NCBI GenBank assembly: GCA_019314005.1
Contig: JAFDAE010000178.1
Coordinates: 1 to 10,041, forward strand
Direction: 5' to 3'
Origin: Deltaproteobacteria bacterium
GTDB lineage: Bacteria; Desulfobacterota; Desulfobacteria; C00003060; C00003106
Length of the DNA: 10,041 bases
In this document: one piece after another, positions 4,526-7,682 of the stretch
How the letters are laid out: each line of letters opens with the position of its first letter
Position numbering within the stretch: the first letter of the stretch is position 1
Program-made: the position numbers and the translations under genes
Notes under the pieces: model-generated
Database searches by the model: none
What the model was told of the DNA's origin: nothing
What the model saw: only the letters and a program-made list of their open reading frames with translations

Positions 4526-4668
4526 TTTGTAGCCTGGAAGAGGTAGTTTTTGGCTCAAGACAAGGCCGCACAAGAGATTACACCGCAGGCGTAGCCCTGC
4601 TACGTCGAGGATGGGATCCCGCGGAGAACGCCGTATTGAGTCAAAAAATGCCTTTCCCAGGCTACAAA
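4526..4668 (+). repeat. Structured palindromic repeat, copy A (143 bp, between gatC and gatA)
   Basis: The element is self-complementary end to end. The outer arm starting TTTGTAGCCTGG (4526) pairs with the end at 4668, and TTTTTGGCTCAA (4547-4558) pairs with TTGAGTCAAAAAA (4636-4648). The centre has ACCGCAGG (4582-4589), an apical hairpin CGTAGC-CCT-GCTACG (4590-4604), and TCGAGGAT (4605-4612). It aligns without gaps to copy B, offset by 1104 bp; I count about 80 matches over the central 97 bases. The gatC stop TAG lies inside its right arm (4662-4664). The strand given is the one reading TCGAGGAT, antisense to the host genes. Confidence 0.85.
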
Positions 4669-4946
4669 ATCTTCGGCACGACAAACACACCATCCTCTTT
4701 TTTCGGAGCGTTGGAAAGCGCCGCTTCATTAGATATTGAGGGGCGCACTTCGTCTTCGCGAAATACATTGGAGATAGAAATAGCATGCGATGTAGGAGGA
4801 ACTCCCTCTGTATTCAAGCGGTTTAATTTATCCATGTAGGCCAGGATATCCCCTACCTGCTTGGTGAAAAGTTCAACCGAGTCTTCATCCAGACTGAGTC
4901 GGGCCAATTTTGCCACATGGGCTATCTCCTCTTTTGTAATCCTCAT
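4662..4946 (-). CDS. gatC: Asp-tRNA(Asn)/Glu-tRNA(Gln) amidotransferase subunit C
   Basis: GatC is the small belt subunit that wraps GatA and GatB and stabilises the tRNA amidotransferase. The 94 residues cover the whole family: the N-terminal helix MRITKEEIAHVAKLARL, the central TEGVPPTSH, the FREDEVRPS motif, and the final acidic segment ending VPKIL. The ATG is 5 nt after the stop of the SPOR gene, which indicates cotranscription and probable translational coupling. An AAGG-type ribosome site overlaps the end of that gene. The TAG stop is formed within the right arm of repeat copy A. Many GatC proteins end one or two residues later (VPKVIE-like), so the repeat may have trimmed the tail trivially. 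Confidence 0.95.
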   Translation of the reverse strand: MRITKEEIAHVAKLARLSLDEDSVELFTKQVGDILAYMDKLNRLNTEGVPPTSHAISISNVFREDEVRPSISNEAALSNAPKKEDGVFVVPKIL

Positions 4947-4951
4947 AGGTT

Positions 4952-5575
4952 TTAGCCTTTTCCTTTCTTTCCTTTTCCTCCGGGAGTCTTTAACACTATA
5001 GGATCGAATTTTTCTTCCTCCCGCAATCGTCTAAGCATTTTTTGGGCATCGGCAGAGGAATTAAAATAACCTACGCACACCCTGTGCCACAGCCCCCTTC
5101 CGGGGATCTGTATTGTATACTTATAAGCGTCATATCCTTTTTTTTGTAGGGTATGGATCAGTTTTTCAGCCTCTCTCGGATTCTTCAGAGAAGCTACCTG
5201 CAGTGTTAACGTCCCTCGTTTGTTTGTGCCAACGGTTTTTTCTTTGGCAGCCGATATGGGCTTTTGTGTGTTTATCCGGGAGGACGATGGTTCGATATTC
5301 TTGAAACGCGCTTGTTCTTTTTTTTCCGTAAGGGTTTCATAAAAATCCAACAACGGCTTTTTAATAAGTTGTTTTGCTTCGCTTTCAGACTGTTTTTGTT
5401 CTTTTTGCAGAAGTTCCTCTTTAAGAGCTATTAACTCTTTTTGTAATTTTTCCACATCAAACTTGACAGCTACCGCGATTACACCGCATATCCACAATCC
5501 TTTTCGGGTCGATACAGTTTTGGCCTTTTTAGGACTCTTTGCAGCCGGTTTTTTATCTATCTTTTTTGCCATCAT
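4952..5575 (-). CDS. SPOR-domain protein with shortened membrane anchor
   Basis: SPOR domains bind denuded glycan strands of septal peptidoglycan. The 207-residue protein has a lysine-rich cytoplasmic tail (1-25), a short hydrophobic stretch GLWICGVIAVAV (26-37), a coiled coil rich in Lys/Glu (about 40-90), a linker, and a SPOR domain (about 119-195: GTLTLQVASL through the KFDPIVL segment). Relatives I recall from deltaproteobacteria have a full membrane helix followed by a VGRGTAPVKFD-like motif before the coiled coil; here AVKFDVEKLQKEL follows after only about a dozen hydrophobic residues. The anchor may have lost about 14 residues in frame. The start ATG at 5575 is chosen over an in-frame TTG three codons upstream; the next codon is also ATG, and the ribosome site is weak. 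It lies between argS and gatC, probably in one operon. Confidence 0.8.
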   Translation of the reverse strand: MMAKKIDKKPAAKSPKKAKTVSTRKGLWICGVIAVAVKFDVEKLQKELIALKEELLQKEQKQSESEAKQLIKKPLLDFYETLTEKKEQARFKNIEPSSSRINTQKPISAAKEKTVGTNKRGTLTLQVASLKNPREAEKLIHTLQKKGYDAYKYTIQIPGRGLWHRVCVGYFNSSADAQKMLRRLREEEKFDPIVLKTPGGKGKKGKG

Positions 5576-5629
5576 ATTAAGCAATTCCGGGATTTAGGAA
5601 TTTAGGGATTCAGGGTTCTTGGTTAGTTG

Positions 5630-5772
5630 GTTTCCATCCAGAAATGGTAGATTTTGTCCCAAGACAAGGCCGCACAAAGGTTTCTACCGGAGGCGTAGCC
5701 ACGCTACGTCGAGGATAGAAACCTGCGGAGAACGCAGTATGGGGGCAAAAGATGCCATTTCTGGATGGAAAC
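5630..5772 (+). repeat. Structured palindromic repeat, copy B (143 bp, between argS and the SPOR gene)
   Basis: A perfect 18-bp outer inverted repeat (5630-5647 / 5755-5772; GTTTCCATCCAGAAATGG) encloses TTTTGTCCC / GGGGGCAAAA (5652-5660 / 5741-5750), then an exact 8-bp stem AGGTTTCT / AGAAACCT (5678-5685 / 5717-5724). Next comes an internal loop, ACCGGAGG facing TCGAGGAT, and an apical CGTAGC-CAC-GCTACG hairpin. Length and spacing equal copy A, but the outer arms differ from those of A while remaining self-complementary. The argS stop TAG (5772-5774) shares its last base with the end of the element. No target-site duplication is visible. Confidence 0.87.
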
Positions 5773-7448: not shown

Positions 7449-7477
7449 GTTCTTATATTATTCCTCGTTTCAACAAA

Positions 7478-7508
7478 ATAATCTCGTAAAAATTTTTTAC
7501 GAGATTAT
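7478..7508. promoter_or_regulatory. Perfect 31-bp AT-rich palindrome upstream of argS
   Basis: ATAATCTCGTAAAAA (7478-7492) and its exact complement (7494-7508) flank one central T. The dyad ends 30 bp before the argS start and is AT-rich, with an A-run meeting a T-run at its centre. This is more like a protein-binding operator or DNA bend than an intrinsic terminator. It overlaps a possible argS -10 element. An mRNA hairpin in the argS leader is the alternative. Confidence 0.65.
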
Positions 7509-7522
7509 CGTGTGTTTCTCAA
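7494..7522 (-). promoter_or_regulatory. Possible argS promoter
   Basis: On the minus strand TTGAGA (7517-7522) and TAAAAA (7494-7499) are separated by 17 bp and would direct a transcript towards argS. The -10 box lies inside the 31-bp palindrome, which would suit repression. The -10 box matches the consensus only moderately. Confidence 0.3.
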
Positions 7523-7540
7523 AATAAATTTTACTTTCTT

Positions 7541-7682
7541 GAGGCAGTCCCAAAACATCCCCTTTTGCCTAATCTCTGCGTCAGGCTAAGATTTTAATCC
7601 TCGAAATACTTCAAGTATTCCTGCGGTTCAAATCTTCGCCTTTCTTGACATTAGACAAAATTGAACATTTTGAAACTGCCTC
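7541..7682 (-). repeat. Structured palindromic repeat, copy C (142 bp, between argS and alr)
   Basis: Read on the minus strand, it has the same order of parts as copies A and B: an outer arm starting GAGGCAGT, TTTTGTCTAAT paired with ATTAGGCAAAA, an inner stem AGATTTGA / TAAAATCT (7 of 8 pairs), ACCGCAGG, the apical hairpin AATACTTGAAGTATT, TCGAGGAT, and ACGCAG. The plus-strand sites are 7620-7627 for ACCGCAGG, 7605-7619 for the hairpin and 7597-7604 for TCGAGGAT. Only the loop-side blocks are conserved; the stems are different sequences that still pair. TCTT occurs directly on both sides (7537-7540 and 7683-7686), a possible 4-bp target duplication. It lies upstream of both argS and alr. Confidence 0.8.

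What the first reader, a model, noticed from the sequence alone, without database searches (positions are those of the whole stretch)
4526..7682. Three copies of a structure-conserved 142-143-bp palindromic repeat family
Elements at 4526-4668 (A), 5630-5772 (B) and 7541-7682 (C, inverted) share a fixed order and spacing of short blocks: TTTTG, ACCGNAGG, a 15-nt apical hairpin, TCGAGGAT, ACGC(AG), CAAAA. A and B are exactly the same length and align without gaps; C is one base shorter. They occupy gene spacers within about 3.2 kb. Conserved loop-side blocks with variable stems suggest a folded RNA, or a DNA hairpin bound by a protein, rather than simple sequence homology. I cannot say whether the family has been described.
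Basis: seen in the sequence. Interest (0 to 1): 0.78.

Follow-up and report, generated by a model that had tools for sequence, protein, structure and literature searches.

The report
Mobile DNA hairpins with shared core
The three hairpin-shaped repeats are small non-coding jumping elements (MITEs) that occur in large numbers in some bacterial genomes; they are unusual because versions with different ends keep the same folded centre.

Summary
A (4526-4668), B (5630-5772) and C (7541-7682, minus strand) are copies of one palindromic family (110-136 bits with a covariance model built from 28 elements including them; core pattern absent from 200 shuffles). Pairing is maintained by compensatory change: 1208 two-sided cells against 330 in shuffles.

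They are miniature inverted-repeat transposable elements, not fixed RNA genes. Copies with different ends show different target-site duplications: 4 bp (26 of 30, one genome), 5 bp (12 of 27 exact), 6 bp (8 of 16). C has a 4-bp duplication (TCTT). B lies exactly on the argS stop codon; the 12 relatives' loci that I fetched lack it there.

The odd part is the core: an asymmetric hairpin (ACCGnAGG - 15 nt - TCGAGGAT) shared by elements with different ends in several phyla. Core-less derivatives sit at three sites, so the ends probably suffice for movement. What the core does is unknown; folding of one strand (RNA or ssDNA) is inferred. No Rfam match; ERIC membership was tested and not supported.

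The parts
4526..4668 (+). Element A, core in + orientation, between gatC and gatA (both on the minus strand)
   Evidence: model R1 110.6 bits; fold z -7.7
5630..5772 (+). Element B, core in + orientation, between argS and a SPOR-like gene (both on the minus strand)
   Evidence: R1 136.0 bits; fold z -12.0; no R1 match in the argS loci of 12 relatives
7541..7682 (-). Element C, core on the minus strand, between argS and alr
   Evidence: R1 133.2 bits; fold z -10.6
4582..4612 (+). Core apical hairpin of A
   Evidence: exact pattern match
5686..5716 (+). Core apical hairpin of B
   Evidence: exact pattern match
7597..7627 (-). Core apical hairpin of C
   Evidence: exact pattern match
4561..4566 (+). 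5' side of the lower internal loop of A (CAAGGC)
   Evidence: read from sequence; aligned
4627..4631 (+). 3' side of the lower internal loop of A (AACGC)
   Evidence: read from sequence; aligned
5665..5670 (+). 5' side of the lower internal loop of B (CAAGGC)
   Evidence: read from sequence
5731..5735 (+). 3' side of the lower internal loop of B (AACGC)
   Evidence: read from sequence
7537..7540 (.). Left copy of the target-site duplication of C (TCTT)
7683..7686 (.). Right copy of the target-site duplication of C (TCTT)
5772..5774 (-). argS stop codon TAG, formed by TA outside the element and the end base of element B
   Evidence: ORF end; ArgS matches its model to the last position, 569 of 569; stop at the same place in relatives
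4662..4664 (-). gatC stop codon TAG, inside the end of element A
   Evidence: ORF end; GatC matches its model to position 92 of 93 at its own last residue

Best explanation
The three elements are MITEs: non-coding transposons moved in trans by transposases of insertion sequences that recognise their terminal inverted repeats. Shown: many dispersed copies, terminal inverted repeats, class-specific target-site duplications, absence of the element at the argS locus of 12 relatives, and core-less derivatives with the same junction at three sites. Inferred: that the enzymes are transposases encoded elsewhere, and that three duplication lengths mean at least three transposase specificities. The members keep one asymmetric hairpin core. 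Because the core persists while ends and outer stems diverge with pairing maintained, I infer that source elements are selected to fold on the core strand, as RNA or single-stranded DNA, perhaps to bind a widespread protein, and that the cut-and-paste step itself does not need this. Resident copies seem to drift rather than being kept for a host function in cis (inferred from the lack of orientation bias and from the youngest family). The confidence given is for the MITE statement; for the role of the core I would say 0.35.
For: Duplications against mispaired flanks: 4 bp 26/30 (expected 0.34; all 30 from genome G001), 5 bp 12/27 exact (0.12) and 23/27 with at most one mismatch (1.19), from 9 genomes or loci, 6 bp 8/16 (1.53), 7 of the 8 of the form TANNTA. 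Compensatory change: 48 of 49 pairs have two-sided changes, 91.9% of cells paired against 64.1% shuffled. No element in the argS loci of 12 relatives, the 12 fetched of 103 genomes with a match. Core-less 63-bp derivatives at 3 sites with one junction. No orientation preference: 36 against 33. In the youngest family the core changes no less than the rest (0.030 against 0.021 in stems and 0.029 in loops). G-U above 12% in 11 of 49 pairs, A-C in 1 of 49.
Against: No autonomous transposon with matching ends was found: none of 18 DDE_Tnp_1 loci in 5 draft genomes is bracketed by one of 9 MITE end sequences tried, at 78% or more. 69 of 164 elements fit none of the five end classes and were not tested for duplications; A and B show no clear one. 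Core conservation is largely ascertained by the retrieval pattern; 15 of 109 and 26 of 88 model hits lack the exact pattern and mostly differ at one to a few core positions, but those hits were picked by model score. The G-U excess falls to 114:78 and 67:41 without G-U-rich columns, and is 353:265 in a neutral arm alignment. Several of the ends resemble each other, so gradual divergence is possible instead of a change of transposase.
Confidence: 0.85

Rival explanations
1. Plain MITEs whose core is similar only through recent common descent and horizontal spread; the core has no function.
For: Core-less derivatives sit at three sites; in the youngest family the core drifts as fast as the rest; no orientation bias.
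Against: Outer arms and ends have diverged widely while the core and its internal loops stay, and two-sided changes keep pairing. This holds also among copies of one genome: two-sided Watson-Crick cells are 26 of 36 changed paired cells in G007, 24 of 61 in G011 and 22 of 33 in G012, but 2 of 29 in the young G001 family (a pair changed on both sides is counted from each side).
Confidence: 0.3
2. Cis-acting RNA element that hosts keep for mRNA processing, termination or stability in operons.
For: A and B sit at stop codons between genes of one strand; the fold is strongly conserved.
Against: No orientation bias (36 against 33); C lies in a divergent spacer; promoter- and terminator-like sites in 4400-7800 are no more than in shuffles (5 against 5.2, 4 against 3.9); no element at the argS locus of 12 relatives.
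Confidence: 0.1
3. The stem complementarity is made by mutation (template switching between arms of a quasi-palindrome), not by selection on a fold.
For: Two-sided Watson-Crick changes are frequent within three of four genomes examined.
Against: The same process would be expected also to erase the conserved non-complementary internal loops and the G-U-rich columns, which persist.
Confidence: 0.12
4. The family is a distant branch of ERIC/IRU elements.
For: ERIC also is a palindromic MITE with an apical hairpin flanked by G-A mismatches and, in some copies, an AACGC block (read by eye).
Against: Core model R2 scores 8 ERIC loci at 2.4 to 8.9 bits, E 0.11 to 9; the best hit lies off the ERIC apical hairpin. 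Full model R1, tried on two copies of one locus, finds none.
Confidence: 0.1

Closest known systems
ERIC/IRU/RU-1 (127-bp enterobacterial MITE)
   Same: Palindromic, mostly intergenic, multi-copy, asymmetric centre; movement by a transposase not shown (PMC2229807 and PMC10969869, passages read)
   Different: Other ends, other length, other hosts; no significant score with either model
Chunjie MITE of Geobacter uraniireducens (178-235 bp)
   Same: MITE with similar size (passage of PMC10969869); type II members here are about 180 bp and occur in bins named Geobacter
   Different: Not comparable here: its paper is not held and I had no sequence of it. It may turn out to be a member of type II.
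GTAG/CGTC REP elements
   Same: Short palindromic repeats in many copies across phyla (PMC3733652, passages read)
   Different: 20-40 bp, a tagged end, RAYT transposases for GTAG; here about 142-180 bp with terminal inverted repeats and target-site duplications
Correia/NEMIS elements
   Same: MITEs with 5'TA ends and stable hairpins; a proposed role in RNA processing (PMC2229807, passages)
   Different: Other hosts; no sequence comparison was made here

Membership tests
Bacterial MITE | Terminal inverted repeats | tested here: met
   Outer arms are complementary; 36-nt arms 83% complementary in A and B, families
Bacterial MITE | Target-site duplication | tested here: met
   4, 5 and 6 bp classes far above the mispaired control; window C TCTT; A and B inconclusive; 69 of 164 elements not classed
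Bacterial MITE | Short, non-coding, dispersed, multi-copy | tested here: met
Bacterial MITE | Autonomous partner with the same ends | tested here: inconclusive
   None among 18 DDE_Tnp_1 loci in 5 genomes; draft genomes, other transposase families not tried
ERIC/IRU | Sequence-structure similarity | tested here: not met
   R1 no hit in 2 copies of one locus; R2 2.4-8.9 bits, E 0.11 or worse in 8 loci
ERIC/IRU | 127-bp length and TATACCC-type ends | tested here: not met
   Lengths about 142-180 and other ends
Chunjie | Sequence identity to the Geobacter uraniireducens element | not testable with these tools
   Paper not held
REP (GTAG/CGTC) | 20-40 bp palindrome with GTAG or CGTC tag at one end | tested here: not met
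   Unit is about 142-180 bp with terminal inverted repeats
Any Rfam 15 family | Match to a covariance model | tested here: not met
   0 at gathering threshold in the window; 0 at E up to 1 in 4500-7700

The most novel reading that the evidence does not exclude
A single folded nucleic-acid module rides inside MITEs moved by several different transposases in several bacterial phyla. It is a hitch-hiking structured core that gives its carriers an advantage (binding of a universal host factor as RNA or single-stranded DNA), and known orphan MITEs such as Chunjie, or more distantly ERIC, may be further carriers.
Probability: 0.3. Interest if true: 0.8.

Novelty: new variant of a known kind. Interest (0 to 1): 0.57.

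Why it matters
Bacterial MITEs are commonly seen as debris of one insertion sequence in one group of hosts (my general knowledge). A core that keeps its sequence and fold across phyla, while the ends recognised by transposases change, means that something besides the transposase selects MITEs. The family has a ready model, high copy numbers and natural core-less controls, so the question of what a MITE's inside is for becomes testable.

Tried and rejected
ERIC kinship: suggested by similar blocks, tested with two models, not supported.

Orientation bias: a first subset gave 27 against 10 with the core opposite to both flanking genes; with 164 elements it was 36 against 33, so I dropped it.

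Autonomous transposon: ends without a core nearby were inspected in three loci (L135, L138, L193), and I saw no transposase gene (judged by eye from the translations); L172, with 76 bases left on its contig, was not followed. In L229 the end matches belong to separate MITEs, one of which interrupts a transposase gene; in L225 they lie 163 bases apart, MITE size.

G-U against A-C: strong in the model alignment (302 against 70 in outer stems; 71 of 76 non-redundant sequences), weak in a neutral arm alignment that also took in flanks and loops (353 against 265), moderate without G-U-rich columns. I therefore treat strand-specific folding as likely, not shown.

Plasmid search with element B: no match. 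Paper searches for a description of this family; none seen in the listings, and the library holds open-licence papers only. At least one pattern hit is probably chance: L098 looks like coding sequence (read by eye) with weak flanking complementarity (score 20, median 61; three true elements with insertions or odd arms also score 12 to 19, so the score alone does not decide). No model was run on it.

Full report
Observation. The core pattern ACCGNAGGNNTAN7TANNTCGAGGAT, drawn up from these copies, occurs 3 times in the window and in none of 200 shuffles. All three fold as one long imperfect hairpin, z -7.7, -12.0 and -10.6. Rfam has no match, at gathering threshold in the window or at E up to 1 in 4500-7700.

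Spread. By record title they are mostly Desulfobacterota-type genomes, with Myxococcales, Chromatiaceae, Selenomonas, Clostridium and Clostridiales, Planctomycetota, Nitrospirae, Gemmatimonadetes, Oligoflexia and others. Nearly all are metagenome bins, so single placements can be wrong, and the Nitrospirae locus (L090) has no model match. One viral contig also matched. In draws from larger groups, 16 of 148 genomes of the phylum of G002 and 2 of 143 of the class of G005 match (the two centre genomes included); the backward control pattern matched in none of these 291. A covariance model (R1, from 28 elements) was run on the window and 93 of the 120 pattern loci: 109 matches at E up to 1e-5, in 89 of the 94 sources. 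It found 9 to 150 matches (150 is the cap) in 12 of 12 genomes reached through hits.

Fold. On 109 aligned copies 91.9% of pair cells are standard pairs (shuffles 64.1%), 48 of 49 pairs show a change on both sides, and 1208 cells do (shuffles 330); sliding the partner by one column drops pairing to 44%. That alignment was fitted to the model, which favours it; the MAFFT alignment of 28, from which the structure was predicted, gave 39 of 49 pairs with two-sided changes. What changes little are the internal loops: GnAGG/TCGA next to the apical stem (part of the retrieval pattern), and AAGGC/AACGC lower down in type I. G-U pairs are above 12% in 11 of 49 pairs, A-C pairs in 1. That asymmetry suggests that one strand folds, but outside G-U-rich columns it is only 114 to 78 (p 0.011) and 67 to 41 (p 0.016), and a neutral arm alignment gave 353 to 265.

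Mobility. Of 164 distinct elements, 95 fall into five end classes; 69 fall into none and were not tested. Within a class the two flanks repeat each other, with a length specific to the class. Ends GAGCCA: 4 bp in 26 of 30 (0.34 expected from mispaired flanks), all from genome G001. Ends GAGACC/T: 5 bp in 12 of 27 exactly and 23 of 27 with at most one mismatch (0.12 and 1.19), from 9 genomes or loci. Ends GTGTC/GTGCC: 6 bp in 8 of 16 (1.53), 7 of the 8 of the form TANNTA. Ends GAAG are flanked by TA on the left in 13 and on the right in 15 of 20. The class GAGGC has two members; one, window C, has TCTT on both sides (7537-7540, 7683-7686). By eye, type II (ends GGGCTTGTCCG) shows 3-bp TAA or TTA in most of the five copies printed, and Selenomonas elements (ends GGGCGTGTTGATTAA) show TA in most. 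So elements with the same core carry several duplication classes, which I read as several transposase specificities. The GTGNC ends occur with two main core subtypes (CGTA in 8, AATA in 11, CATA in 1), so ends and core are not tightly linked.

The argS site. A DNA search with argS matched 103 of 117 genomes of the class of G002, the best at about 68% identity, so none is close kin. In the 12 loci fetched, argS is followed by a match to the window's next gene (a SPOR-like protein; its NCBIfam matches to FtsN and others are below the cut-offs), as in the window, and R1 finds no element. In the window the ArgS frame ends at the same conserved position, and its stop codon TAG is TA plus the end base of element B. 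GatC likewise is complete and stops inside the end of A. Across 164 elements, 18 of 109 counted gene ends overlap the model edge by exactly two bases (simple open-frame caller, frames of 110 codons or more). Of 123 elements with a clear context 12 lie inside an open frame; 41 of the 164 were left out because a neighbour was missing or more than 500 bases away.

What the core seems not to be needed for. In the Selenomonas bin G013 the end pattern gives 23 close pairs: 15 lie 147-148 bases apart (core-bearing length), 5 lie 171 apart and 3 lie 48 apart (my count from the listing). I fetched the three short ones on purpose. Of 13 complete elements from G013 and G004 in hand, these three are 63-bp forms without the core, at three sites with the same junction; two have an insertion in the apical loop, two have core substitutions, two hold assembly gaps (N), one of these with a full core; five in all match the core pattern. 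In two genomes with type II ends (bins named Syntrophobacteraceae and Desulfobacteraceae) 8 of 8 complete elements in hand have the core region: five match exactly, two differ by a substitution, one is partly replaced. Core-less forms at three sites are best explained by movement without the core; independent identical deletions are less likely. Orientation relative to flanking genes is even (36 against 33), which speaks against a cis role in mRNA. In the youngest family (G001) the core changes as often as other parts (0.030 against 0.021 in stems and 0.029 in loops). In three older sets it changes less than loops but about as often as stems or somewhat less (core/stem/loop 0.039/0.043/0.079, 0.027/0.044/0.076, 0.030/0.037/0.077); these copies were picked by model score. 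I conclude that selection acts mainly on the source elements, not on resident copies.

Mechanism. Shown: transposition, by duplications, copy number and the argS comparison. Inferred: the enzymes are transposases encoded elsewhere; none with matching ends was found among 18 DDE_Tnp_1 loci of 5 draft genomes. Inferred with less certainty: the core acts as a folded single strand, RNA or ssDNA, perhaps by binding a widespread protein. I put RNA slightly ahead because of the G-U-rich columns.

Known relatives. ERIC shares the style but fails both models. Chunjie of Geobacter uraniireducens is similar in size to type II, and 9 of 13 genomes of the family of G003 (a bin named Geobacter) carry the type II core motif with up to one mismatch. 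Other bacterial MITEs and REPs were compared from passages of PMC10969869, PMC2229807 and PMC3733652 only.

Noticed in passing
window 1353-1426: A separate 74-bp palindrome (arms of 20 nt, 95% complementary), probably another small MITE with other ends and no core.
   Followed up: no
window 7473-7513: 20-nt inverted repeat (90% complementary) with a 1-nt gap between argS and element C.
   Followed up: no
window 175-209: Perfect 13-nt inverted repeat (CGGGTTGCGGGTT/AACCCGCAACCCG), possibly another dispersed repeat.
   Followed up: no
L068, L088, L103, L229 (genome G001): Some copies carry a 24-bp insertion (AGCGCTAAAGCTTCACTAAAGTGC or close) in the right middle stem only; L155 and L163 (Selenomonas) carry a loosely similar insertion in the apical loop (by eye): a smaller repeat nested in the MITE.
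   Followed up: partly
L053, L119: The left middle arm is replaced by a short palindrome of the type TCCCGCnnnnGCGGGA while the right arm keeps the usual sequence; L074 and L031 hold loosely similar pieces.
   Followed up: no
L331, L332, L333 (Selenomonas, G013): 63-bp core-less derivatives with the same deletion junction at three sites.
   Followed up: yes
L229:1830-1974: A copy interrupts a transposase gene (C-terminal piece with a DDE_Tnp_1 match) in G001.
   Followed up: partly
many loci; window 5772-5774 and 4662-4664: TA-type elements often sit exactly on a stop codon, so that TA plus the element's end base gives TAG; 18 of 109 gene ends overlap the model edge by two bases.
   Followed up: partly
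window 243-1169: Radical SAM protein with best NCBIfam match heme b synthase AhbD (374 bits, below the cut-off of 500).
   Followed up: no
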